Below are positions 2,644 to 26,032 of a DNA stretch of 40,816 nucleotides, in pieces. Made by a program: the position numbers and the translations under genes. Source of the stretch: an uncultured Bacilli bacterium (GTDB taxonomy: Bacteria > Bacillota_I > Bacilli_A > RF39 > UBA660); the NCBI GenBank assembly GCA_947626515.1, contig CANQSL010000007.1, positions 1 through 40,816 of the forward strand. The letters run 5' to 3'. Below the pieces are notes generated by a model. The model saw only the letters and a program-made list of their open reading frames with translations, searched no databases and was not told the DNA's origin. How positions within the stretch are numbered: the stretch's first letter is position 1; the number at the start of each line of letters is the position of its first letter.

Positions 2644-4043
2644 TATATACCTTCTTTCTTATAAGTAGTACCCTCTCTAGTATCTATTAATATTATACCA
2701 TCTTTTTTTAAATCATCTCTTATTTTATCAGCAAGATTATAATTTTTATTTTTTTTAGCTTCATTTCTTTCTTTTATTTTTTCCATTATATAATCATCTT
2801 TATCATTTAAATTTTCCTCTTGCTTTTTTATTAAATCTAAACTCAATACTTTATCAAAAGATTTTATTAATTCTAATTTCGTATGGTTATTTACTTCATC
2901 ATCTTTTAATAAATCATATATTAAACTTATTGAATTGGCTGTATTTAAATCATTTGAAATATATTCAATAAATTTATTATTATATTCATCAAATAAATTT
3001 TTATCTAAATTACCATTATCTTCAATACTATTTATTTTATTTAATAATTTATTATAAGCATTTTCCTGTTGTTTTAAAATATCATATGAAAATACTAATT
3101 GTTTTCTATAATGACTATTTAAACACATAAATCTAAATGAAAGTGGATTATATCCTTTATCTTTTAATACACTAACTGTCAATATATCTCCTTTAGACTT
3201 ACTCATTTTACCGGATTCATCATTCAAATGTTCATTATGAAACCAATAATTACACCACTTATGTCCTAAATACGCTTCACTTTGTGCTATTTCATTAGTA
3301 TGATGTGGAAATATATTATCTACTCCACCACCATGTATATCTAAATATTCTCCTAGATGTTTTATACTTATTCCAGTACATTCCATATGCCAACCCGGAT
3401 AACCTATACCAAATGGACTATCCCACTTCAATTCTTGATCTTGAAATTTACTTTTTGTAAACCATAATACAAAATCACCGGGATTACGTTTATTTAAATC
3501 TTGTTCTACGTCATTTCTTACACCAATTTTTAATTCATCTATTTTTTGGTTAGTTAATTCATAATAATTTTTACATTTACTAATATCAAAATATACGTTT
3601 CCATTAGAAATATATGCTATATCTTTATTTAATAAATCTTTTATTATTTCAATATAAAAATCTATTAGATTAGTAGCAGGTTCTACTATATTAGGCATTT
3701 TACAATTAAGAGCTTTATAATCTTTAAAAAATGCATCTGTATAAAATGCTGCTATATCCATAACACTTTTATGCTCTTTTATAGCACTTTTAACCATTTT
3801 ATCATCACCAGTATCAGCATCACTTGTCAAATGTCCTACATCAGTTATATTCATTACTCTTTTTACTTCATATCCTAAATATTCTAAAGTCTTTTGTAAT
3901 ATATCATGTCCTATATAACATCTTAAATTACCTATATGAGCATAATGATATACCGTTGGCCCACAAGTATAAAATCCTACATAATTTGGCTTTATACTTT
4001 TAAATTCTTCAACTTTTTTAGTTAATGTATTATATAGTTTCAT
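2643..4043 (-). CDS. cysS: Cysteinyl-tRNA synthetase
   Basis: A 466-residue class I aminoacyl-tRNA synthetase that charges tRNA-Cys. The HIGH-like motif is HIGN at 36-39, and KMSKS is at 279-283. The zinc ligands are C27, C222 (in HMECTG), H247 and E251 (in PHHTNE). The C-terminal helical region (330-460) is intact and of normal length. ATG start with AAAGGAGAAAT upstream, and a clear promoter about 20-50 bases upstream. The short leader has no room for a T-box, so tRNA-dependent control is not visible. It forms an operon with the YugP-type protease. Confidence 0.97.
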
Positions 4044-4063
4044 AAATATTTCTCCTTTAATAT

Positions 4064-4092
4064 ATTGTATAAAATATTTTAATTATTTACAA
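4064..4092 (-). promoter_or_regulatory. Promoter of cysS
   Basis: On the minus strand TTGTAA (4092-4087) and TACAAT (4069-4064) are separated by 17 bases, a SigA-type promoter about 20 bases upstream of the cysS start. Confidence 0.7.
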
Positions 4093-4124
4093 TCAGTTTT
4101 CATATTAATTTTATTTTTAATTAC

Positions 4125-4149
4125 ATAAAAAAATTAATTAGCAATTAAT
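4125..4149 (-). terminator. Intrinsic terminator of the DUF2798-like gene
   Basis: ATTAATT and AATTAAT (7 bp) close a three-base loop and are followed on the minus strand by a run of T. It separates the riboswitch-like unit from cysS. Confidence 0.7.
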
Positions 4150-4150
4150 A

Positions 4151-4705
4151 CTAACTAATCTTATAATTATTTTTCTTATATATTAATTTAAACAATTTTC
4201 TTACAAAAGGTTGTATAAAGAATAATTGAGAAAAATACGCAAATGGAAAATTGAAACAAATCAACTTTAGCCAATTAGCAAGCAATGTTAAAATATTAAA
4301 ACCATTATAGTATGGATAATATAGAAATGCTGCAATAAAACTCATTATTGGAACCATTATAGCAACTGTAGCACATATTACAGCTGTTTCAAATTGAACT
4401 GGATCAGTTTTTTTTATGTCAAAATTCTTACAAGCCATTTTAAAAGAAAATGGTTGACCTATCATCATTTCTGCTAAATAAGCAAAACAAAATTCTACTA
4501 GTATTACTGACCATATAGGTAAATAATGACCAAACATATATACTCCACCTAAATTATTTATAGCTTTTAGTACGCTACTAGAACCAGTTAAATTTATTAA
4601 TGTAGTGCCATTTACAACATATAAACTATAAAAAACATATGCATGAACAGTAATAATTACTGTAATCAAAGCAAATATCGCTTTTTCTTTTTTATTCGTT
4701 GGCAT
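4151..4705 (-). CDS. DUF2798-like multi-spanning membrane protein
   Basis: A 184-residue integral membrane protein. Four hydrophobic segments are visible (about residues 8-28, 62-80, 105-128 and 138-160), with an N terminus MPTNKKEKAIFALITVIITVH that resembles DUF2798 proteins. I place the start at the ATG at 4705 because GGAGGTG sits eight bases upstream; an in-frame TTG at 4720 lies inside that ribosome site. No enzymatic motif is seen. It is alone between a promoter with a structured leader and its own terminator, so its expression is probably set by the leader RNA. Transport of the leader's ligand would be a natural guess but is inference. The family assignment is moderate. Confidence 0.65.
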   Translation of the reverse strand: MPTNKKEKAIFALITVIITVHAYVFYSLYVVNGTTLINLTGSSSVLKAINNLGGVYMFGHYLPIWSVILVEFCFAYLAEMMIGQPFSFKMACKNFDIKKTDPVQFETAVICATVAIMVPIMSFIAAFLYYPYYNGFNILTLLANWLKLICFNFPFAYFSQLFFIQPFVRKLFKLIYKKNNYKIS

Positions 4706-4721
4706 AATTTTCACCTCCAAT

Positions 4722-4819
4722 TTTTTGCAATAAAAAACACATATATAATCCTTAGTTCCGTAATCAGATTTACGAGCAGGATTGCTCTACATGTGTCATC
4801 TAATGAATTGCAAATTGCC
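4722..4819 (-). ncRNA. Candidate pseudoknotted leader RNA (riboswitch-like)
   Basis: The leader between the promoter and the DUF2798-like gene folds into a compact three-way arrangement. P1 is ACACAUGUA (4796-4788) with UAUAUGUGU (4745-4737), 9 bp. P2 is GAGC (4787-4784) with GCUC (4777-4774). P3 is GUAA (4773-4770) with UUAC (4763-4760). The P2 loop AAUCCU (4783-4778) is perfectly complementary to AGGAUU (4752-4747) between P3 and P1, giving a pseudoknot. An outer helix can form between UUUGCAAU (4814-4807) and AUUGCAAA (4731-4724). A U6 run follows P1, and the ribosome site starts about ten bases later. I do not recognise it as a named riboswitch class. All pairings are read from the sequence; function is inferred. 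Confidence 0.5.
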
Positions 4820-4825
4820 AAAGAT

Positions 4826-4854
4826 ATTATAACAACTTTTTCTTTATTTAGTAA
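4826..4854 (-). promoter_or_regulatory. Promoter of the leader RNA and DUF2798-like gene
   Basis: Minus-strand TTACTA (4854-4849) and TATAAT (4831-4826) with 17 bases between them. Transcription would begin near 4819, just ahead of the structured leader. Confidence 0.6.
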
Positions 4855-4863
4855 GTAAATATT

Positions 4864-5358
4864 TTATTTACACAATTGGCTTAACTTATTAATAATATAA
4901 TTTTTCGTTTCATCAAAACTCATATCTAATGATAAAGATAATTCATTATATAAATATTTTTCTGCAAGATTAAAATAATTAGTATCTTTTTCACTTAATT
5001 TCTTATTATTTTTAATTCTATTATCATTTCTTAAATATGATGTTTTTATAATTTTTATTAAATCAATATGATTTCCATTATATAAAAGCTCTTTATAAGT
5101 TTTTTCTATATCTCTTTCTTGAATATTTTCTATTATATCTATATTTGGAATATTATTTATTAAATCTTCTGCTTCTTGTTTACTAATTATATTTTTTAAA
5201 AGATCTGTTTCATTATCTATAGGAACATTTATTTTTAATGATTCATCATCTATAGGTACTAAAATATAATAATCTTTTCCATTCATTTTATTATTCTTTA
5301 TATCTTTTATTTTACAAACATCTTTTTTATAAATCACATAATCATTAATCTTATACAT
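4864..5358 (-). CDS. CarD/CdnL-type transcriptional regulator
   Basis: A 164-residue protein. The first 65 residues form a CarD/TRCF RNA-polymerase-interacting domain (YKINDYVIYKKDVCKIKDI, then YYILVPIDDESLKINVPIDN). The remaining helical part carries IPNIDII, a YKELLYNGNHIDLIKIIKT stretch and the KKLSEKDTNYFNLAEKYLY segment typical of the C-terminal DNA-contacting domain. CarD proteins bind the RNA polymerase beta subunit and stabilise open complexes. The gene starts two bases after the stop of the MATE fusion gene with GAGGTAA as ribosome site, so the two are co-transcribed. A weak 7-bp hairpin (GTAAATA/TATTTAC, 4855-4871) follows. Confidence 0.88.
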   Translation of the reverse strand: MYKINDYVIYKKDVCKIKDIKNNKMNGKDYYILVPIDDESLKINVPIDNETDLLKNIISKQEAEDLINNIPNIDIIENIQERDIEKTYKELLYNGNHIDLIKIIKTSYLRNDNRIKNNKKLSEKDTNYFNLAEKYLYNELSLSLDMSFDETKNYIINKLSQLCK

Positions 5359-5360
5359 AA

Positions 5361-7373
5361 TTACCTCGTATATTTATCTTTATGAATAATTATATTTTTA
5401 ATTATTTCTGCTGTTTGTTCTACGCCTAATTTATCAACATTTATAACTAAATCATAATTTTCATAAGAATTCCAAATTTTATTAGTAAAATAATTATAAT
5501 GCTTTGCTCGTTGCTTATTTACTTTATTTATTTCTTTTAAAGCATCTTTTTTATTTAAACCATAATATTTAACTACCCTTTTAATTTTAGAATCGGTATC
5601 TGAATATAAAAATATTCTAATTAAATTTTTTGTGTTTCGCAATATATAATCTGCACATCTTCCAACAATAACACAAGATTCTTTTTTGGCAAGTGATTCT
5701 ATTACTTTAGATTCATTTTCAAACAACTTGTTATCATTAGTATAAAATATATTTGTAAAGCTTTTTTCTTCATTTTCTAAAATATATTTTTTACTGTATC
5801 CATATTCTTTAGCCGTTATATTAATAATTTCTTTATCATAAAATTTTATACCTAATTTTTCAGCAAGTAATTTTCCTACAAAATGCCCACCAGATCCATA
5901 TTCTCTAGAAATAGTTACGATTATTTTATTATTAAGTATTCTATTATTAATATCTTGATTTTCAATTTCTACATCATAATTTTCATTTATTTTTTCTATT
6001 TTACAAAATTCTTTTTTCAATAAAATTATACCTGTAATAAAAGCTAAAGCATCTGCTATTATAGCACTCCACAACATAGTTACAACACTATGGCTTAAAG
6101 ACGCAATTATTATAATTGTTGGTACAAAAAATATAACATCTCTCGCAAGAGCCAATAATGTTGATTTAAAACCTGATCCCATTGATTGCAATAATATAGA
6201 TATTGTTTTAATCAAACAAGTAAGTATAATGCCTCCTAAAAATATATTTAAACAATATTTTGAATATTCTAAATATTCTCTAGAATTACCACTTCCAAAT
6301 ATATTTATAATAAATGTAGGAAAAAACTCAAATAGTATAAATGCAATACACCCTATTATTAAATTTGTTATTAATATATATTTTATAGTTTCTTTAACTC
6401 TTTTAATATTACCTGCTCCCATATTATAACCAATAATAGGCATTCCACCCAATGATATACCAATAACAATAGATACAACTATTCCAAATACTTTCATGCA
6501 TATTCCTATAACAGCAAGAGGTGTTACAACTCCATAAGGTTTTCCAGTACTAGAGATTGTCATATATCCATACTTACCAACTAAATTATTAGCAACTGCT
6601 ATTATAATTACAATTGCAAGTTGTGTAATTAAAGAAGCTAACCCTAAAGAAATTATTTTCTTACAAATTGTTTTATCTAATTTAATTGATTTTTTATTAA
6701 TTTTAAAAGATTTGGACTTTTTTAAATATAAAATACTTATTATGAATGTTAAAATTTGACCTATGATAGTTGCAAGAGCTGCTCCTTTAACATTCATCTT
6801 AAAAACAAATATAAATATAGGATCTAAAATAATATTAGATATTGCTCCAACAACAGTTGCAAACATTGCATATTTTGGACTGCCATCACTCCTTATAGAT
6901 GCATTTAAACCTTGTCCAATAATATAAAATGGCAATCCAAAACAAATAATTCTTAAATAATCTTTAGCATATTGATAACATTCTACCTCATTAGGATTTC
7001 CACCAAAGATACTCAATATTTGTTCATTAAATATAATTCCTATGATAGTTAATACAATAGAAATAAATATAAGAAGTATTAAGCAATTGCCGATTGATTT
7101 ATTCGCTTTTTCCTTATTTTTACTCCCTAATGATAAATTAAATAATGTAGCTGAACCGTCTCCTATCAATAAAGCAAAAGCTAAAGCGATAACAGTAAAT
7201 GGATAAACAATATTAGTTGCAGCATTACCAAAAGCACTAGCTTCACTCCAACCTATAAATATTTGATCCACAATATTATATAAAGCTGCTACAATCATAC
7301 TTATTACACATGGTATTGAAAATTTTTTAATTAATTTAGAAATTTTATCTTCTCCCAAATCAAGATTTTTCAT
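5361..7373 (-). CDS. MATE efflux transporter fused to a cytidylate-kinase-like domain
   Basis: A 670-residue single open frame. Residues 1 to about 450 are a complete 12-helix MATE/MepA-type exporter (DLGEDKISKLIKKFSIP, IVDQIFIGW, GQGLNASIRSDG, MPIIGYNMGAGN). Residues 484-670 match the Cytidylate_kin_2-type domain: ISREYGSGGHFVGKLLAEKL, FYDKEII, VIVGRCADYIL and YYGLNKKDA. A charged linker of about 25 residues follows the last helix, so the kinase-like domain is cytoplasmic. MATE proteins export cationic compounds by Na+ or H+ antiport; the role of the appended domain is unknown. Start ATG with GAGGAGG. A leader terminator precedes the gene, and carD follows it. Confidence 0.9.
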   Translation of the reverse strand: MKNLDLGEDKISKLIKKFSIPCVISMIVAALYNIVDQIFIGWSEASAFGNAATNIVYPFTVIALAFALLIGDGSATLFNLSLGSKNKEKANKSIGNCLILLIFISIVLTIIGIIFNEQILSIFGGNPNEVECYQYAKDYLRIICFGLPFYIIGQGLNASIRSDGSPKYAMFATVVGAISNIILDPIFIFVFKMNVKGAALATIIGQILTFIISILYLKKSKSFKINKKSIKLDKTICKKIISLGLASLITQLAIVIIIAVANNLVGKYGYMTISSTGKPYGVVTPLAVIGICMKVFGIVVSIVIGISLGGMPIIGYNMGAGNIKRVKETIKYILITNLIIGCIAFILFEFFPTFIINIFGSGNSREYLEYSKYCLNIFLGGIILTCLIKTISILLQSMGSGFKSTLLALARDVIFFVPTIIIIASLSHSVVTMLWSAIIADALAFITGIILLKKEFCKIEKINENYDVEIENQDINNRILNNKIIVTISREYGSGGHFVGKLLAEKLGIKFYDKEIINITAKEYGYSKKYILENEEKSFTNIFYTNDNKLFENESKVIESLAKKESCVIVGRCADYILRNTKNLIRIFLYSDTDSKIKRVVKYYGLNKKDALKEINKVNKQRAKHYNYFTNKIWNSYENYDLVINVDKLGVEQTAEIIKNIIIHKDKYTR

Positions 7374-7385
7374 TTATATCCTCCT

Positions 7386-7457
7386 CAATTTTATCATAAA
7401 AATACGTAAGTCCTTTCAATTGGACTTACGCATTTTTGCAACTCATTGATAAAATCG
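7386..7457 (-). promoter_or_regulatory. Leader terminator/attenuator of the MATE fusion gene
   Basis: About 20-90 bases after the predicted start of transcription a 13-bp hairpin (AATGCGTAAGTCC with GGACTTACGTATT, 7434-7401, one G-U) is followed by T5, an intrinsic terminator inside the leader. Around it CGATTTTATCA (7457-7447) pairs with TGATAAAATTG (7396-7386), an 11-bp outer helix that ends directly at the AGGAGG ribosome site. This is the layout of conditional attenuation. Mutually exclusive folds are not obvious by eye, and I cannot match the guanidine-IV (mepA) consensus that controls some MATE genes. Confidence 0.6.
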
Positions 7458-7483
7458 ACTTAAATATTTTTTGTTTCGAATTG

Positions 7484-7512
7484 ATTATAACATAAAATTT
7501 AATTCTTTGTAA
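7484..7512 (-). promoter_or_regulatory. Promoter of the MATE-carD unit
   Basis: Minus-strand TTACAA (7512-7507) and TATAAT (7489-7484) spaced by 17 bases; predicted start near 7477, giving a leader of about 100 bases. Confidence 0.7.
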
Positions 7513-7563
7513 GTTTTAATTAATAAAATATCCCTTCAACACTTATCACTCGTTTTAATATTA

Positions 7564-7587
7564 TTCATATTATCACGATAATATGAA
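7564..7587 (-). terminator. Long hairpin at the end of the XRE gene
   Basis: TTCATATTATC and GATAATATGAA form an 11-bp perfect stem spanning the TGA stop. There is no good T run, so it may be a weak terminator or a 3'-end stabiliser. Confidence 0.5.
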
Positions 7588-8079
7588 TGAAACTGTATTA
7601 CAAACTGTAGCAATAAAAAACATGGTTCCAGTAAATAAATCAGTTTTATCTTTTTTTATTTTATACCTACTAAAAAAAGTTACTCCATTATAAGCACATA
7701 TTAAACTTACTAAAGCATGTAATGACGTATCTTTAAAAAAGGAAATCAAAGTTAGAATTATAAAGAAAATACTCATTCCAATTACTCCATATTTCATAGT
7801 TTTTAAATTAATTAGTTCAGTTAATTTTATAATATTTTCTTCACTCTTTTTTTCTATATCATTGCTTTCTATAAATTCTCCTATAAGAATCTCATTTACA
7901 CTTACTTTCAATATTTCACTAAGTGGTCTTAACAAAGACATATCCATTAAACATAACCCTCTTTCCCATTTGCTAACAGCATTTTTAGTAATACCTAAAC
8001 TTTCTGCAAGTTTTTCTTGAGTTAAATTTTGTTTTTTCCGAGCTTCTGCAATAAATTTTCCAATACGAACTTGATTCAT
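7573..8079 (-). CDS. XRE-family regulator with membrane C terminus
   Basis: A 168-residue protein. HTH at 1-65 (VRIGKFIAEARKKQNLTQEKLA, ITKNAVSKWERGLCLMD), then the linker KKSEENIIKL that also occurs in the XRE proteins at 24599-26032 and, loosely, 1227-1835. Hydrophobic stretches at about 95-115, 120-135 and 148-165 suggest membrane anchoring. I choose ATG at 8079, preceded by AAAGGAG; the longer in-frame TTG at 8094 would place the ribosome site inside the coding region. It follows the two fused ABC exporters on the same strand but has its own promoter region and operator-like palindrome, so it may regulate them or itself (inference). Confidence 0.8.
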   Translation of the reverse strand: MNQVRIGKFIAEARKKQNLTQEKLAESLGITKNAVSKWERGLCLMDMSLLRPLSEILKVSVNEILIGEFIESNDIEKKSEENIIKLTELINLKTMKYGVIGMSIFFIILTLISFFKDTSLHALVSLICAYNGVTFFSRYKIKKDKTDLFTGTMFFIATVCNTVSFILS

Positions 8080-16508: not shown

Positions 16509-17618
16509 TTAATTTAATTCAATATATTTTTTAAAAAAATAGTTGATATATTTTACATAATCTACAATTTCAGTACAATTTTCTACTTTACAATTTTTTG
16601 TTTCAAAACCATTTAAATAATAATCTCCATATAAAGTTTCATTATTTTCAAAAATAATATAAGAAACTTTGTTAGAATTTAAGTCAGCGCTTAGTGAACC
16701 GACATCATCAATTACTAATAAAAAGGTATAATCATTTAGCGTTATATTTATTTTATCTTGTAAATTCATTTCATAATAATCTGACTTTTTTTCAAAGCCT
16801 TCATTTAATAAAAATTTAATAAAATCTTGAGATAGATTTTTGTAATCTTTTGTGCTTTCATTATCTTCAGATATTGAAGTAGATTTTTTAGGAAAAATAT
16901 TATTATTTGAATAATTTAATTCTTTTGATAATTTTATTGTTTTAATTAATCCTTCTTCATATTCTAAATCAACATATAAATCTTTATCTTTTAATTTATA
17001 TAAGTTATATTCATTATATCCATTATTTTCATAAATAAATTGATTTTCGTTTTCAAATGTTATAATTAAATTTTTTTTATCTTTATTTTCCTTATAATAA
17101 AATTCTATATTTTTTATTTCTTTTCCGTCTAACCCTTTTATTTTATCAAAATATAACATTGACATATCATTAGTAGTAATTAAATTTGCATTTATATCAA
17201 AATTATTATCATTGCTTTTTAATGTATATATTTTTATTGAATTTCTTATAAAGATAAAATAAATAGATATGAATAATATAATTGTTATTAATAATATTAT
17301 TATAATAGTAAATAAAACTAATATTTTTTTATTTTTTATATATTGTTTTAATAGTAATCTATAATTCATAAAAAAGGATTTGTTTAAATTTTCTTGATTT
17401 TCTTTTGTAATTCTCTCTCCATAAGTTAATTCCCCTATTGTGACATTAAAAATTTTAGATATTTTTTCTAACGTATTTTCATCAGGAAAAGAAATTCCAT
17501 TTTCCCATCGAGAAATGGTTTTATCACTATAATGCAATAAATTTGCTAATTCTAACTGTGTCATTCCTTTTTCTTTTCTTAACTCTGATAAAAATTTACC
17601 ATTTTTTTCAAACTTCAT
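16509..17618 (-). CDS. XRE-family membrane regulator with extracytoplasmic sensor region
   Basis: A 369-residue protein. HTH at about 5-65 (GKFLSELRKEKGMTQLELA, YSDKTISRWENGISFPDE), linker, one strong membrane helix at about 99-125, and an extracytoplasmic region of about 245 residues with two cysteines in NCKVENCTE near the C terminus. This is a single-protein membrane sensor-regulator. It sits immediately upstream of the secreted-protein and ABC genes on the same strand, so it is the best candidate for their regulator, perhaps sensing the secreted product or envelope damage (inference). ATG with TTGGAGTAG. Bases 17619-17800 upstream are extremely AT-rich with several weak -10-like boxes and no gene. 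Confidence 0.8.
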   Translation of the reverse strand: MKFEKNGKFLSELRKEKGMTQLELANLLHYSDKTISRWENGISFPDENTLEKISKIFNVTIGELTYGERITKENQENLNKSFFMNYRLLLKQYIKNKKILVLFTIIIILLITIILFISIYFIFIRNSIKIYTLKSNDNNFDINANLITTNDMSMLYFDKIKGLDGKEIKNIEFYYKENKDKKNLIITFENENQFIYENNGYNEYNLYKLKDKDLYVDLEYEEGLIKTIKLSKELNYSNNNIFPKKSTSISEDNESTKDYKNLSQDFIKFLLNEGFEKKSDYYEMNLQDKINITLNDYTFLLVIDDVGSLSADLNSNKVSYIIFENNETLYGDYYLNGFETKNCKVENCTEIVDYVKYINYFFKKYIELN

Positions 17619-17800: not shown

Positions 17801-17830
17801 AAATACTAATTGTATTTTAATTAGTATTTT
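17801..17830 (-). terminator. Terminator of the envelope operon
   Basis: AATACTAATT pairs with AATTAGTATT around a seven-base loop directly after the MMPL stop, followed by T-rich sequence on the minus strand. The stem is symmetrical enough to work in both directions. Confidence 0.75.
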
Positions 17831-20800
17831 ATCTTTGTTTCTCTTTATAACTATCTTTACATATTAGCCTATCTGTTGTAGCTAGTACACCAGGCAACAT
17901 AAATAATATTAGTATTACAGCTGCAAACGTACCTTGAGATATTGTTTCACATATTTTTGCAGCAATAGCTGATGCAAAATTAGCGACAACTAATGTCACA
18001 ATAATCAAAATAGTCGAAGAGCTAATAATTGTATTAATAGATTTATTATAGGCATTGATTATAGAATCTTTAACTCCCATCTTTAATCTAGATTCTCGAT
18101 AATATGAGGTATAAACTATTGCATAGTCTATAGTTGCTCCCATTAATATAGCCTGAACTATAAGTAAAGATATAAAATATACTGAGCCACCTGTAAACGA
18201 TATAAAACTCATTATAATATATACCGCTGTTTGAATAATTAATACTAAAACAAAAGGTATAATTAGATCTCTAAATGTTATAGCAACTACAACAAATATA
18301 AATATCATTGTCAATATAGTAATTTTATTTAATTCATTATTAAACGTCTTACTCATTTCAACTGCCATTGCAGAATTACCAACAACATATATATCATCTT
18401 TATTTCCTACTTTGTCTTCAATAGAATTAATAAAGTTATATGTATCTTTATTTTCAAATTCATATTTAGTATTCAATACAGCTCTAGAATATTTATCAGA
18501 CACAATTAATTTTTTAGATTTATCAACATTTTTTTTAGAATCAGTAATTGTATTTCTTTTTTCACTAGTTATAAAATCATCAAATCTATTATCTGTAATA
18601 ATATCTGAATTCAAATATTTAACAAATTCTTCAATCGTCATTTTCCAAGATTCATTATATTCTTTATTGCTACCATAATACATATAAACTAAGTCTAATA
18701 AATCTTTATCTAAATTATTACTTAAAACTTTTAATATATTAAATGCTTCATTTGAAGTATATTTTGTTTGATTTAATGAATTATTCATTAATGTATTAAT
18801 AGTTGTTAATTTTTCTTTTTTTTCTATATCAAAGTTAGATGAATAATCTTTATTATTCATAACATCTTTAATAATAAAATCTACGTATTTATATATAGAA
18901 ATCTCTTCATTTGATTTTATATATTTAGAATTATATAAACTAAATAATAAACTCATTGTATCATTATTAATATTTAATAATTCACTTAATTTTAAAGATG
19001 TATATTTAGTTTTATTTATTGTTGATTCCATTACACTTTTAACTAAATTTAATTCACTTATTGATGAATTAGATATTTTTCCAACTAACAACTCATTATC
19101 TTTATTATTTAATATTAAATTTGTTAGTTCTAAAGGAGACAAAGTTGTCAAATTATAATTATAATCATAAACTCCATATATTTTTTTTACCTGTTCTTTA
19201 TCAGTATTTGTTATATTACTTATATCTTTATAATTATAAGAATTAGAACTATTTACAATAGTATAAGCTAAATTTAAAATATTCTTTTCACTATCAAGAT
19301 ACTGTTTAAAAAGTTCATTATTTTGATTTTCAATCAATAAATTTATTAAATCTTTTATAGAAATTTTCATTAAATTATCCTTTTCATGATAACCATATAT
19401 AATACTTACAACTGTTTCATTTTGATTCAAAGTTTCAGTTAAAGTTTTAGCATTTAATTTTACATTATTTAAAATTAGATTTGCTAATTGTAAATTAGCG
19501 ATTATATTTTTATCTACTTCTATAGCATTATCAGAAATAAGTAATTTTAGTAACTTTTCTACAAAAGATGCTGGAAGCATTGGTTCATCTTCAATATAAG
19601 AATCAATTTTAGCGATTATATTTTCATCTATTTCAAATACTTGATATAATTGAACTTTTGTCATTTGCATAGAAGAAATTGAATTTAAAGATTGTATCTT
19701 TTGTTGTAGAGGAGCCAACGTTTTGGAATCTATATTTATATATGATGAAGTTGCTAAAGAATTTGCTTCATAAACAAATTCACTTAGAGTTAATTGAATA
19801 TTTTCATTTTTTAATCCTGTATTATATAAATATAGTAAAAATAATGTATCACTATTCAATTTTAACCCTAGACTACTTATTGATGATAACATATCATTTT
19901 GATTTAAAGAAATATTTACAGAATTATCACTTAATGTTTTTAAAAGAGTTAAATCTTTAATATTTGTTTTTGAAAACATATCTTTATAAGCAACATTTTT
20001 AGACATTTCTAATGCAAATGTAGCAAATTCATTTAAAGTTAGTTTAGTATTACTTTCTAAATTAGTTCTATAAAATAATAATAATTGTTCAATTAAATTT
20101 TTATCTAATCCAAAAATATTAGATAACTCACTAGAATTCATTTCTTTATTTATTTTTGATACTTCAGTAAAATTTTGTAATCGTTGTAATTTTGAAATAG
20201 TAGATTTATCTAAACTAGAATTATATTTTGAATCTTTTGCTACATCATTAAGCATAAAATTTACAAAATCTTTTATAGTCATTTTTGTTACTAAATTTTT
20301 ACTATTATAATAAATTAAAATATTTTTAGCATCTTCTTCATTCATATTTAATATATTTGCAATTTCTTTAACAGATCTTTTCTTATTAATCAAAGAAGAT
20401 GTAGTAAAATTCTCAAGTAAATTTAAATTATCTTTAGTTTCTCTATCTAATGACTTATTAAAGTTATCATTCGTATATATATCTGATTTAATAAATTTAA
20501 TAAATTCATCTAAAGTCATTTTATTTGTTTCATCTTGATTATAATAATTATAATAAATAAGTTTAATTAAGTATTCATCAATATCTACATCTTGATTTAA
20601 GTCTTTAAATTTATTATTCAATTCATCATAGGCTAATTTTTCATTAATCGTATTAGAATAACATAATACTTGATCTATTTTTTTATCTTTTTCTAATTCT
20701 TTACAATAATCAGATATTATATCTTCATATTTATTATTATATACTATTGCTATTTGATTTGTAGCTGGAAATACTGACCCTACTTTATCTTGTTCAGAAT

Positions 20801-21878
20801 CAGTAAATAAAATACCAATATTACCTTTAAAAATATAAGCTAATACAAATAGTATAACAATTAAACTAGCTTGAATATATCTAGTTTTATATATTATTTT
20901 TCCTAATTTAGCTAAGTTAAAGTTTGGAGTTTTTTTCTTAGTTTTTTGAATTAAATTTTCAAAAATTAAAAGTAATGCTGGTAAACAGAAGAAAATACTA
21001 ATTAAACTTAATAATACTCCTTTAGCTAGAACAAAACCTAAGTCTCTTCCAATTGTAAAACTCATAAATACTAAAGCAATTAATCCTACAATTGTTGTTA
21101 AAGAACTACTAGATATTGCTTTAAATGATTGATATAAAGCTTTTTTCATAGCTTCTACTTTATTAGACTCTTTTTCTTTTTCTTGCTTATATCTATTAGA
21201 TAACATAATAGAATAATCCATAGATAAAGCTAATTGCAGAATAGCTACTATAGAATTAGTTATTGATGAAACACTATCAAATATTATATTTGTTCCCTTA
21301 TTAATAAATATAGCTATTCCTATTGAAATTAAATATAACCACGGCTCAATATAAGAATCACTTAATATTATTAATATTACCATAGCACATGCTACTGCAA
21401 GAACAACAATCCACAATTGCAAAATAGGCTTATTTTCATCATATATTGAACCACTAATACCAGCAACTTTAAAATTATCTTTAACATAATTATAAACATT
21501 AGTTGCTGTTTTTGAATCGCTATAGTCATCTACATTTAAAACATATAATGTATAGTTATCTTTATTAAATTCATCTGTATTTTTATAATCAACAGAACTT
21601 ACTCCATTAATGTTTTCTAATTTTTTTAATGTATCTTTCTTTTCATTTTCCGATAAGTCTTTAAACATTACATTAAGTATAGAAGAATCTTGTTCGATAA
21701 ATTCAGTTTCCATTATATCTTTACCAATTTTTGTTTCAGATGTTTTAGGTAAATATTCCATTATATCTTCATTGATATTAACTTTTGTCGATAAAAATAA
21801 ACTTACTCCTGAAAAAATAATAAATAGTATTAAAAAGAAATATCTTTTTGATACTATAAAATCTGTTATCTTTTTCAT
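17829..21878 (-). CDS. MMPL/RND-type transporter with a repeat-expanded outer domain
   Basis: A 1349-residue protein. Helix at 12-30, first outer domain about 31-150, helices between 152 and 310 (including the LSMDYSIMLSNRYKQE motif typical of MMPL proteins), helix 335-352, a second outer region 353-1185, and five or so helices from 1186 to the end (with GATIDYAIVYTSYYRESR). Usual family lengths are about 700-1050, and the excess is a run of about nine repeats at 453-1090. MMPL proteins move lipids or other hydrophobic envelope molecules by proton drive. ATG with CAGGAGGGG. It is the last gene of an operon with InlB-repeat, CHAP and DUF308 proteins, which points to envelope building. Confidence 0.92.
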   Translation of the reverse strand: MKKITDFIVSKRYFFLILFIIFSGVSLFLSTKVNINEDIMEYLPKTSETKIGKDIMETEFIEQDSSILNVMFKDLSENEKKDTLKKLENINGVSSVDYKNTDEFNKDNYTLYVLNVDDYSDSKTATNVYNYVKDNFKVAGISGSIYDENKPILQLWIVVLAVACAMVILIILSDSYIEPWLYLISIGIAIFINKGTNIIFDSVSSITNSIVAILQLALSMDYSIMLSNRYKQEKEKESNKVEAMKKALYQSFKAISSSSLTTIVGLIALVFMSFTIGRDLGFVLAKGVLLSLISIFFCLPALLLIFENLIQKTKKKTPNFNLAKLGKIIYKTRYIQASLIVILFVLAYIFKGNIGILFTDSEQDKVGSVFPATNQIAIVYNNKYEDIISDYCKELEKDKKIDQVLCYSNTINEKLAYDELNNKFKDLNQDVDIDEYLIKLIYYNYYNQDETNKMTLDEFIKFIKSDIYTNDNFNKSLDRETKDNLNLLENFTTSSLINKKRSVKEIANILNMNEEDAKNILIYYNSKNLVTKMTIKDFVNFMLNDVAKDSKYNSSLDKSTISKLQRLQNFTEVSKINKEMNSSELSNIFGLDKNLIEQLLLFYRTNLESNTKLTLNEFATFALEMSKNVAYKDMFSKTNIKDLTLLKTLSDNSVNISLNQNDMLSSISSLGLKLNSDTLFLLYLYNTGLKNENIQLTLSEFVYEANSLATSSYINIDSKTLAPLQQKIQSLNSISSMQMTKVQLYQVFEIDENIIAKIDSYIEDEPMLPASFVEKLLKLLISDNAIEVDKNIIANLQLANLILNNVKLNAKTLTETLNQNETVVSIIYGYHEKDNLMKISIKDLINLLIENQNNELFKQYLDSEKNILNLAYTIVNSSNSYNYKDISNITNTDKEQVKKIYGVYDYNYNLTTLSPLELTNLILNNKDNELLVGKISNSSISELNLVKSVMESTINKTKYTSLKLSELLNINNDTMSLLFSLYNSKYIKSNEEISIYKYVDFIIKDVMNNKDYSSNFDIEKKEKLTTINTLMNNSLNQTKYTSNEAFNILKVLSNNLDKDLLDLVYMYYGSNKEYNESWKMTIEEFVKYLNSDIITDNRFDDFITSEKRNTITDSKKNVDKSKKLIVSDKYSRAVLNTKYEFENKDTYNFINSIEDKVGNKDDIYVVGNSAMAVEMSKTFNNELNKITILTMIFIFVVVAITFRDLIIPFVLVLIIQTAVYIIMSFISFTGGSVYFISLLIVQAILMGATIDYAIVYTSYYRESRLKMGVKDSIINAYNKSINTIISSSTILIIVTLVVANFASAIAAKICETISQGTFAAVILILFMLPGVLATTDRLICKDSYKEKQR
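18609..20522 (-). repeat. Coding repeats in the MMPL outer domain
   Basis: Units begin at residues 453 (KMTLDEFIKF), 532 (KMTIKDFVNF), 612 (KLTLNEFATF), 695 (QLTLSEFVYE), about 767, 838 (KISIKDLINL), 911 (TTLSPLELTN), about 991 (EEISIYKYVDF) and 1079 (KMTIEEFVKYL, partial unit). Intervals run from 71 to 87 residues. Each unit continues with a short charged stretch, a pattern like LxxLxxhxxxS, a short EL/EI helix and an LLxxYxxx end. They are diverged at the DNA level, so the expansion is old. Confidence 0.85.
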
Positions 21879-21905: not shown

Positions 21906-22478
21906 TTATTTTAGTTTTAATCCACTAATATATTTTTCTATTTTTTTAACATTACTATTAAATATTATAATTTCTATTATATTTATTATTGCAAAACAAA
22001 TTAAAATATATCCTATAGTTCTAACTATAATTCCTTTAGTTAAAACAACAAATCCACCACATAAAACCATTAAAATGGATAATAATATACTTATTGCTCC
22101 AATCTTTTTATTTATATAACATACTTTGTGTGCTAAAGATATACTTATAATTCCTTCGTACATTACAATTAATCCAATAGCGATTCTAAAAATACTTTGA
22201 AATTCATTTTTAAATATAAAGCAAATTATACCTAAAATAATGTTCAAAATACCATATGATAAATCATAATTAAATATGCTATATTTACCATCAAATCTTA
22301 AATAATAAAATATTTTAAATAAACCAATTATTATTAAACTTATTCCAATTAAATAAGATATAAAATTTAATATATTATTTGGCCATAGTATCATAATAAT
22401 TCCTAATACTATAATCATTAAACTTATTAATACTGATTCAAAATTATATTCTTTTATTTTTTTTTCAACTGTTTTCAT
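21906..22478 (-). CDS. DUF308 (HdeD-like) membrane protein
   Basis: A 190-residue protein with six hydrophobic segments paired as in DUF308/HdeD proteins (for example MIVLGIIMILWPNNIL, then repeats of Gly-rich helices and ILMVLCGGFVVLTKGIIVRTIG). The family has internal repeat structure and no known reaction; some members are tied to acid or envelope stress. Its start overlaps the CHAP gene end by 14 bases, with AGAAGGAAA as ribosome site, and MMPL follows 27 bases later. The role here is probably envelope-related by context only. Confidence 0.8.
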   Translation of the reverse strand: MKTVEKKIKEYNFESVLISLMIIVLGIIMILWPNNILNFISYLIGISLIIIGLFKIFYYLRFDGKYSIFNYDLSYGILNIILGIICFIFKNEFQSIFRIAIGLIVMYEGIISISLAHKVCYINKKIGAISILLSILMVLCGGFVVLTKGIIVRTIGYILICFAIINIIEIIIFNSNVKKIEKYISGLKLK

Positions 22479-23400
22479 TTTTATTTTCCTTCTTATTTAC
22501 AAATTTTCTATTTCTTTTTAAAAATATTACTAAAATTATAATTAATATTATTAATAACGTTACTATTATATAATAAAATATATTTTTATTATCTTTTTTT
22601 AAAGTTTCATCTTTTTTAGTAGTATTTTTTTTCTCTTCTATAGTTGCTTTTAATTCTTCTCTAGTTATGTTAATAATATAATTACTTTCTGATTCGTCTT
22701 CTGCTACAACTTTAATAGTAATTATATTTTCTCCTGGTTTTAGTTCATATTCCTTTAATCCTTCAACTTTAGATTTACTATCTAAAGATTCTCCAGTAAT
22801 ATTGATTCTATCTTTCTCATTTGGAACAACAATATTATAAAAATAATTATCTTTATCAAAGTTAATATCTATATCTTCTATTTCTAAATTTTTTAAATAA
22901 CTATTAGAAGATCTTGATACTGATGTTATATTTGAATTATTACTAGGAACTTTTGATTCATTTACATAAATAAAACCTAATAAATAAACACCACTTTGCT
23001 CTCCGGATCCAATTCCCTTACTTCTAATACTCTCTATTTTTCCTTCTCCTGTAGATTTATTTTCAATAAGTTTCATACTATCTTCATATACTTCAATAAC
23101 AAACGCTACATGCCCATATCCATAAAAACCAGAATAAACAGCAATTGAATTAGCTTTTGCTTCATTTCCTACTTGGTATCCAGCATAAGAAGCATTTTTA
23201 TACCAATCCACTGCATTGCCCCATCCAGGAAGAGCAATTCCCAATCTATCATAAGTTTCCTGCCATACTACTCTTGTACATGGAGTACTAATTACACCAT
23301 CAAATTCTTGAGTTTGAGGATAAGGATTGCTAGCTGCATATATATTTTTTATAGGCAATATTAAAAGTATAAATAAACTTATATAAATTAATTTTTTCAT
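22465..23400 (-). CDS. Membrane-anchored CHAP-domain peptidoglycan hydrolase with cadherin-like domain
   Basis: A 311-residue exported protein. The signal peptide ends near residue 22. The CHAP domain (about 30-150) holds the catalytic C41 in TPCTRVVWQ and H97 in YGHVAFV, and ends in GVYLLGFIYV. Residues about 165-253 form a cadherin-like beta-sandwich (YLKNLEIEDIDINFD, YNIVVPNEKD, LKPGENIITIKV). A helix at about 276-298 followed by KRNRKF anchors it with the enzyme outside. CHAP enzymes cut peptidoglycan as amidases or endopeptidases. ATG with GGTGG, three bases after the InlB-repeat gene stop. Expected role: wall remodelling alongside the MMPL transporter. Confidence 0.88.
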   Translation of the reverse strand: MKKLIYISLFILLILPIKNIYAASNPYPQTQEFDGVISTPCTRVVWQETYDRLGIALPGWGNAVDWYKNASYAGYQVGNEAKANSIAVYSGFYGYGHVAFVIEVYEDSMKLIENKSTGEGKIESIRSKGIGSGEQSGVYLLGFIYVNESKVPSNNSNITSVSRSSNSYLKNLEIEDIDINFDKDNYFYNIVVPNEKDRINITGESLDSKSKVEGLKEYELKPGENIITIKVVAEDESESNYIINITREELKATIEEKKNTTKKDETLKKDNKNIFYYIIVTLLIILIIILVIFLKRNRKFVNKKENKNENS

Positions 23401-24598: not shown

Positions 24599-26032
24599 TT
24601 ACTCTATATTAAATTCTACAGAAAAAAGATATTCTTTACATTTATTTTTACAAGGAGTTTCTGAATTTAATAAAGCTCTTTTTACAATTCTATATTTTCC
24701 CTTAGATAGTATACCATAGGATTTTTCCCAATCAATATCAAACTCTAAATTACCATTTATATCTGGTCCATAAGCCATTAAAGTAAAAAGCAAAGGTTTT
24801 TTTGTAGGTAATTCTTTCCAACTATTACCTTCTTTTTTTTCTATTTTAAAGTCTGATCCATAAGAATATTTATAATTTGAAAAATCAGTTATTCTAACTT
24901 TAGCTGATTTAGAAGTTAATGTTCCTTCAACAATATCCATTCTTACATGCTCTAATTCATTTAACTCTACATCGCTTTCTAAATCATCATTAACTATTAT
25001 TTCTTCATTAATTTGTTCAGATATTTCTTTATCTGTTTCTATAGCTCTTAAAAGTGTAGAGTTATTAAAAATATTTTTTATATTATCTTCATATTTGCTA
25101 AAAGTTAAAAATGAAAATTCATAGGTATGTCCAGGTATTAATAAATATGAGTTATTTATCATAACTGTTTCTATATTATTATTTTGTTCTAATGTAACAT
25201 CATTGAATTCGCTATCATCTTTATTTATAGTAGAACTTAAAATTTTATAAGTCCTAATAAAACTTTCATTTTCATTTCTTTCATGACCACAATATTCACC
25301 ATTTAAATTTTCTACCATTTTATCATTACCTATATATACATCTTTATTCCCATTAATATTATTACAATAAATAACAACTATTCCAGCTTTTTTATAAATT
25401 GTTGTTCCTCCATCCCACATCCTCATAGCTTGATAGTTTTCGTATTCTATTTGTTTTTCTAAATAATCTTGAAAATCATTTAAACTTATTTGCTTACGTC
25501 TTAAAGCATCATCTACTTGAAAACACTTCTCTTCTTTATTACAAAAAATAGCAAAATCAATACCATAATAAAAAACATTTCTTTTATCAACACTTATTTG
25601 TTTATTTAATTTATATGGTTTATCAGGATCAGCAGGCTGAATAGTAAAATTATATAAATCAATTTTAGGACATATATTTTTTATAATTAAAAATAATATT
25701 ATAAATGATAAAATTATTCCTGATGATAGAATAGTTATTAATTTTTTTGATCTTTTTTTATGCCTTTTATTTTCATTTAATAGATTAATAATATTTTCAT
25801 CACTTTTTTTTATATTATTACTTACTCTTTCTCCACTAATTAATTCATTAATAGATATACCTAATATTTCACATAATTTTTTAAATAAAGAAACATCAGG
25901 AAGACTTCTGCCATTTTCCCAATGTGAAATAGCTCTATCAGTTATTCCTAATCTTTGAGCGAGTTGTTGTTGTGTTAAGTTATTCTCTTGTCTAAGTTTA
26001 GCAATAAATTTACCAATCTTTTCTTGATTCAT
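24599..26032 (-). CDS. XRE-family membrane regulator with extracytoplasmic Ig-like domain
   Basis: A 477-residue protein. HTH at 1-66 (IGKFIAKLRQENNLTQQQLA, ITDRAISHWENGRSLPDVS), linker with KKSDENIINLL, one membrane helix at about 97-119, and a large outer part. The last 110 residues (VRMDIVEGTLTSKSAKVRITD, GSDFKIEKKEGNSWKELP, GILSKGKYRIVKRALL) match the bacterial Ig-like fold often found in secreted Bacillota proteins. The outer part holds six or more cysteines. It is a likely surface sensor linked directly to transcription; the adjacent envelope operon is a plausible target (inference from position). ATG with GAGGTGAT. Confidence 0.82.
   Translation of the reverse strand: MNQEKIGKFIAKLRQENNLTQQQLAQRLGITDRAISHWENGRSLPDVSLFKKLCEILGISINELISGERVSNNIKKSDENIINLLNENKRHKKRSKKLITILSSGIILSFIILFLIIKNICPKIDLYNFTIQPADPDKPYKLNKQISVDKRNVFYYGIDFAIFCNKEEKCFQVDDALRRKQISLNDFQDYLEKQIEYENYQAMRMWDGGTTIYKKAGIVVIYCNNINGNKDVYIGNDKMVENLNGEYCGHERNENESFIRTYKILSSTINKDDSEFNDVTLEQNNNIETVMINNSYLLIPGHTYEFSFLTFSKYEDNIKNIFNNSTLLRAIETDKEISEQINEEIIVNDDLESDVELNELEHVRMDIVEGTLTSKSAKVRITDFSNYKYSYGSDFKIEKKEGNSWKELPTKKPLLFTLMAYGPDINGNLEFDIDWEKSYGILSKGKYRIVKRALLNSETPCKNKCKEYLFSVEFNIE

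What the first reader, a model, noticed from the sequence alone, without database searches (positions are those of the whole stretch)
18609..20522. MMPL transporter with about nine extracytoplasmic repeats
Residues 453-1090 consist of units of 71-87 residues starting with a K-M-T-h-x-E-F-like motif. I know of no repeat family of this type inside MMPL porter domains; it could form a long helical arm reaching into the wall, perhaps to bind a partner or substrate.
Basis: seen in the sequence. Interest (0 to 1): 0.6.

Follow-up and report, generated by a model that had tools for sequence, protein, structure and literature searches.

The report
Membrane pump with nine-unit repeat arch
A proton-driven membrane exporter of an uncultured Bacilli-class bacterium carries nine tandem helical modules in one of its outer domains, a module family found in no searched database outside this kind of pump, and the way the modules evolve suggests that they form a folded-back arch reaching into the cell wall.

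Summary
The repeat is real. The 1349-aa protein is an MMPL/RND exporter, and residues 414-1123 (window 18510-20639) are nine tandem units of 69-86 residues. The best off-diagonal self-alignment scores 411, against 135 +/- 19 for shuffles. A three-unit model is all-helical (pLDDT 84, four helices per unit) and matches no solved fold significantly. The unit is absent from Pfam, NCBIfam and PDB sequences. In about 1000 Bacillota genomes, every array I fetched and read (about 35 genomes) was in an MMPL protein, always at the same place in the second porter domain. Unit number varies from 0 to 9. Mycobacterial MmpL4 carries its unrelated coiled-coil at the corresponding place. Conservation falls from both array ends to the centre in 7-, 8- and 9-unit proteins alike (9 units: 54, 47, 40, 30, 25, 35, 39, 45, 53% identity). 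The array is therefore most likely a folded-back arch whose middle is the distal, fast-evolving tip, not a one-way arm. Most relatives have a divergent TetR-family regulator, which suggests inducible export of an amphiphile. Substrate, oligomeric state and conduit function are inferred.

The parts
17829..21878 (-). MMPL/RND exporter gene, 1349 aa
   Evidence: Two Pfam MMPL matches, whole-protein E 4e-45
18510..20639 (-). Whole array of nine units, residues 414-1123
   Evidence: Self-alignment and unit HMM
20382..20639 (-). Unit 1 (residues 414-499)
   Evidence: Mapped
20145..20381 (-). Unit 2 (500-578)
19908..20144 (-). Unit 3 (579-657)
19668..19907 (-). Unit 4 (658-737)
19461..19667 (-). Unit 5 (738-806), the least conserved unit, proposed tip
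19242..19460 (-). Unit 6 (807-879)
19008..19241 (-). Unit 7 (880-957)
   Evidence: in the three-unit model
18765..19007 (-). Unit 8 (958-1038)
   Evidence: in the model
18510..18764 (-). Unit 9 (1039-1123)
   Evidence: in the model
20640..20810 (-). Porter domain 2, part before the array (residues 357-413)
   Evidence: Alignment with MMPL proteins that lack units
18369..18509 (-). Porter domain 2, part after the array, begins at the strand with Y-S-R (residues 1124-1170)
21213..21218 (-). Asp221-Tyr222, expected proton relay of TM4
   Evidence: Motif and alignment to MmpL4
18123..18128 (-). Asp1251-Tyr1252, expected proton relay of TM10
   Evidence: Motif and alignment to MmpL4
21906..22478 (-). 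DUF308 membrane protein gene, 27 bases upstream of the exporter; takes the place of the TetR-family gene of most relatives
   Evidence: Pfam DUF308 E 8e-12; TetR absent from the window

Best explanation
A proton-motive-force-driven MMPL (RND superfamily) exporter whose second porter domain carries an expandable array of helical modules. The array leaves the porter at residue 414, runs outward through units 1-4, turns around unit 5 and returns through units 6-9 to the porter at residue 1124. It thus forms a folded-back arch or hairpin that projects into the cell wall. It occupies the place where mycobacterial MmpL4/5 carry a coiled-coil hairpin, and most likely does a similar job with different bricks: it extends the exit path of an amphiphilic substrate (fatty acid, lipid or membrane-active compound) away from the membrane, or holds the pump in the wall, with length set by unit number. 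Shown: the repeats, their occurrence in MMPL proteins only among the genes read, the common insertion site, the variable number, the V-shaped conservation, and a linked TetR-family gene in most relatives. Predicted: the four-helix unit. Inferred: the arch, the oligomeric state, the substrate, the conduit or anchoring role.
For: MMPL matches and both Asp-Tyr pairs. Nine units with no long linker at either end. Helical three-unit model, pLDDT 83.6, pTM 0.72. Same insertion site from 0 to 9 units. MmpL4 coiled-coil in the same gap; the MmpL5 insertion is required for efflux (PMC12501195). Symmetrical fall of conservation to the centre in 7-, 8- and 9-unit sets. dN/dS 0.17, 0.26, 0.39, 0.46, 0.68, 0.47, 0.51, 0.16, 0.11 against 0.10-0.13 in most of the core, with similar dS. 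Divergent TetR_C_8 gene in 20 of 27 unit-bearing loci, as for FarR/FarE.
Against: No confident full-length model: residues 150-1349 gave pLDDT 41.7, so the arch is not seen. The window copy itself lacks the adjacent TetR gene. The V-shape could also come from growth or gene conversion in the middle of the array (unit 3/4 similarity in L003). The second dN/dS pair is noisier. No substrate evidence.
Confidence: 0.5

Rival explanations
1. The array is a binding or adhesion surface (for a wall polymer, a partner protein, host material, or a site used by phages) whose exposed middle changes under outside pressure; transport itself does not need it.
For: The middle units evolve fastest; unit number varies between relatives.
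Against: All dN/dS values stay below 1; no known binding domain matches; the units stay inside one exporter family at one site.
Confidence: 0.25
2. The array is a mostly passive spacer: central units are under weak selection and are copied and lost by recombination, and only the end units matter because they pack on the porter domain.
For: The gradient of constraint; positional match of end units but not of middle units; some recent copying in the middle.
Against: No intact relative of the window's own clade has shrunk to a few units; 6-9 units are kept across the family, and the central units still show dN/dS below 1.
Confidence: 0.2
3. The array is a one-way solenoid arm that runs outward from the porter domain.
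For: Tandem helical units often stack as solenoids; the units are predicted all-helical.
Against: There is no linker long enough to bring the last unit back: unit 9 runs straight into the porter strand. Conservation is symmetrical about the middle, not graded from one end.
Confidence: 0.05

Closest known systems
Mycobacterial MmpL4/MmpL5 with coiled-coil insertion in periplasmic domain 2
   Same: MMPL exporter core; long helical insertion at the corresponding place of the second porter domain, entering and leaving at the same point (PMC12501195)
   Different: Insertion is one antiparallel coiled-coil of about 196 aa with a tip disulfide; here nine sequence-related four-helix units, 710 aa, no cysteine, no sequence kinship, no MmpS partner gene seen next to it
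FarE/FarR of Staphylococcus aureus (MMPL fatty-acid exporter with divergent TetR-family regulator)
   Same: MMPL exporter with a divergently placed TetR-family gene in most relatives
   Different: The FarE sequence was not compared here; the window copy has no adjacent TetR gene; substrate unknown
690-aa MMPL proteins of the same bacterial family
   Same: Same core and topology, both Asp-Tyr pairs
   Different: Zero units: a short linker replaces the array; they form a separate branch of the tree
EF-hand pairs
   Same: Two helix-loop-helix halves per unit with short bridges at the loops and hydrophobic-x3-E-[FL] spacing; GCAP-1 and calmodulin appear at Z 2.7-2.8 in the structural list
   Different: No calcium-loop signature and no Pfam EF-hand hit; those Z values are at noise level

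Membership tests
MMPL family (PF03176) | Match to the family profile over the curated cut-off | tested here: met
   154.6 bits against 20.5
MMPL family (PF03176) | Two homologous halves, each with TM1/TM7, outer porter loop and five further TMs | tested here: met
   Two profile matches, one in each half; the exact TM count rests on homology, the hydropathy plot merged segments
MMPL family (PF03176) | Asp-Tyr pairs of the proton relay in TM4 and TM10 | tested here: met
   D221-Y222 and D1251-Y1252, aligned with MmpL4
actII/MmpL subfamily TIGR00833 | Score over the subfamily cut-off | tested here: not met
   136.3 against 874.7 bits
MmpL4/5-type coiled-coil insertion | Insertion at the same place in porter domain 2 | tested here: met
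   Profile alignment of eight relatives to MmpL4
MmpL4/5-type coiled-coil insertion | Antiparallel coiled-coil hairpin with tip disulfide | tested here: not met
   Many short helices, four per unit; no cysteine in the array
FarE-type exporters | Divergent TetR-family regulator gene | tested here: inconclusive
   20 of 27 unit-bearing loci, but not the window copy
FarE-type exporters | Export of unsaturated fatty acids | not testable with these tools
   Needs an export or resistance assay
EF-hand | Calcium-binding loop signature | tested here: not met
   No PROSITE-like match in 39 array-bearing sequences
EF-hand | Fold | tested here: inconclusive
   Z 2.7-2.8 among unrelated rows

The most novel reading that the evidence does not exclude
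A new modular repeat family, confined to Bacillota MMPL pumps, builds arches of adjustable height that assemble (for example six limbs in a trimer) into a wall-crossing conduit: an independent counterpart of the MmpL5 coiled-coil tube in bacteria without a mycomembrane.
Probability: 0.2. Interest if true: 0.75.

Novelty: new variant of a known kind. Interest (0 to 1): 0.5.

Why it matters
How lipid and drug exporters of Gram-positive bacteria hand cargo across the wall is open. This is an unannotated repeat family at the very site where mycobacterial MmpL4/5 carry their extension, with natural length variants from none to nine units. The hypothesis that insert height sets function can therefore be tested with ready-made homologues.

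Tried and rejected
Prediction of residues 150-1349 with four rows: pLDDT 41.7, used only as a hint of helices. A three-unit alignment with overlapping windows aligned shared units out of register and was dropped. Foldseek on PDB (best E 0.69), on viral models (best E 0.11) and VIA-align (best Z 4.0) gave no trustworthy fold match. PDB hit 8vd6 at E 2e-12 is five copies of one 25-residue helix-turn-helix match in a repeat protein (no stretch passes on its own), not kinship. Weak unit hits in a 365-aa and a 374-aa frame of two relatives (28-70 of the model) cover only part of the unit, mostly its helix-turn-helix half; not read further. The viral contigs scanned and the plasmid collection gave no array. 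The Monoglobus plasmid MMPL has one unit-like hairpin that the HMM does not score; seen by alignment only. The idea that each unit is an internal duplication of two hairpins: 12 columns aligned, single-comparison P 0.002, probability 15%, undecided. Clostridia could not be searched. Full-text paper searches found no description of such repeats.

Full report
The gene. Window 17829-21878 (-) encodes 1349 aa with two Pfam MMPL matches (E 4e-45). It is the only MMPL gene found in its 1.37-Mb genome. Asp-Tyr pairs stand at the TM4 and TM10 positions (D221-Y222, D1251-Y1252), aligned with the same pairs of MmpL4. The linker before TM7 is strongly positive (+7) and the loop that holds the repeats is negative (-21), so the loop is outside, as expected for an RND protein.

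The repeat. The best off-diagonal self-alignment of residues 453-1090 scores 411, against 135 +/- 19 for shuffles. An HMM of the unit, refined on relatives, finds eight full units and a ninth start, plus a weak half unit before the first motif. In the natural frame these are nine whole units at 414, 500, 579, 658, 738, 807, 880, 958 and 1039, ending at 1123. Consensus: KLTLKEFVNFILNNVLNNEKYSSSLDEETINKLKLLKNIMNSSLNNKKYTSKELSNLLGIDKDKVKLLYLLYD.

What the unit is. No Pfam, NCBIfam or PDB sequence family covers it. A model of units 7-9 built from a 12-row alignment has pLDDT 83.6 and pTM 0.72, with twelve helices, four per unit, and short bridges at the M-T and Y-T positions. Solved structures give no significant match (Foldseek best E 0.69, VIA-align best Z 4.0); this does not prove a new fold. 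The helix-loop-helix pairs recall EF-hands in spacing, but the calcium loop is absent.

Where it occurs. About 1000 genomes of the phylum were searched, 60 with the whole protein and the others with the unit profile. Of 145 genomes of the window's family, 32 matched, in 32 genera; one of these is a single weak partial hit (G060). The arrays I fetched and read (about 35 genomes, in at least six families of the class) are in MMPL proteins; a few are contig-end fragments with one MMPL half. Unit number is 6-9 within the family, about 3 in two proteins of other families, one unit-like hairpin in a Monoglobus protein and in one short relative, and none in 690-aa MMPL proteins. The site is the same every time: porter domain 2, before the strand that holds Y-S-R. 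In a profile alignment MmpL4's coiled-coil falls into the same gap. MmpL5's insertion there is needed for efflux and is modelled as a 13-nm tube (PMC12501195).

How it evolves. Within proteins the units are old (median identity 24-33% between units of one protein), with some recent copying in the middle, for example units 3 and 4 of L003 at 49%. Across relatives the end units match by position and the middle ones do not. In three sets with equal unit number, identity falls from both ends to the centre: 54-47-40-30-25-35-39-45-53 (9 units, 13 sequences), 43-38-35-26-29-36-41-48 (8 units, 10 sequences), 40-33-26-26-32-36-44 (7 units, 8 sequences). A strict valley with its minimum in the centre has chance 2e-4 for nine values in random order; the three sets are related sequences, so they are not fully independent. 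Between the window gene and L003, dN/dS per unit goes 0.17, 0.26, 0.39, 0.46, 0.68, 0.47, 0.51, 0.16, 0.11, while the core on either side has about 0.10-0.13. A second close pair shows the same trend with more noise.

Reading. Both ends of the array enter the porter domain with no long linker, so units 1 and 9 must lie near each other. The symmetrical gradient says that constraint falls with distance from that base. The simplest shape is an arch or hairpin with unit 5 as the far tip. This is inference: a 1200-residue model failed (pLDDT 41.7).

Function. In 20 of 27 unit-bearing loci examined a TetR-family gene (TetR_C_8) stands divergently 53-359 bases from the exporter, as FarR stands to the fatty-acid exporter FarE in S. 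aureus (PMC10019231). The window copy instead follows a DUF308 membrane-protein gene by 27 bases. I read the protein as an exporter of an amphiphile, inducible at least in the relatives, with an arch that extends its exit path or anchors it in the wall. Substrate, assembly and conduit role are not shown.

Limits. One phylum was searched; Clostridia could not be reached. Structure prediction was restricted to the window and three loci. The paper library is partial.

Noticed in passing
L047:5503-7704 and 7661-7993: In a genome of the same genus the homologous gene is in two pieces: a 110-aa N-terminal frame and a 733-aa frame that begins in the units, with TM2-TM7 missing. A decayed copy or an assembly error.
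   Followed up: no
21906-22478: DUF308 membrane-protein gene directly upstream of the exporter, where most relatives have the divergent TetR-family gene; no close homologue of that regulator in the own genome, only a weak hit on another contig.
   Followed up: partly
22465-23400: Secreted protein with CHAP domain, cadherin-like domain and a C-terminal TM segment, its start overlapping the DUF308 gene: a possible wall hydrolase in the same operon.
   Followed up: no
24599-26032: Protein with an N-terminal Cro/C1-type HTH and a C-terminal bacterial Ig-like domain (Big_14), an unusual pairing of a DNA-binding and an extracellular domain; 16509-17618 also joins such an HTH to a TM segment and an unknown C-terminal part.
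   Followed up: no
L049:4386-8117: A 1243-aa MMPL of the same bacterial family without these units but with other extra sequence and a TetR-like neighbour: a different way of extending the protein.
   Followed up: no
L046, residues 685-790 of the protein at 3642-7745: A stretch of about 100 residues inside the array that the unit model does not recognise, perhaps a decayed unit.
   Followed up: no
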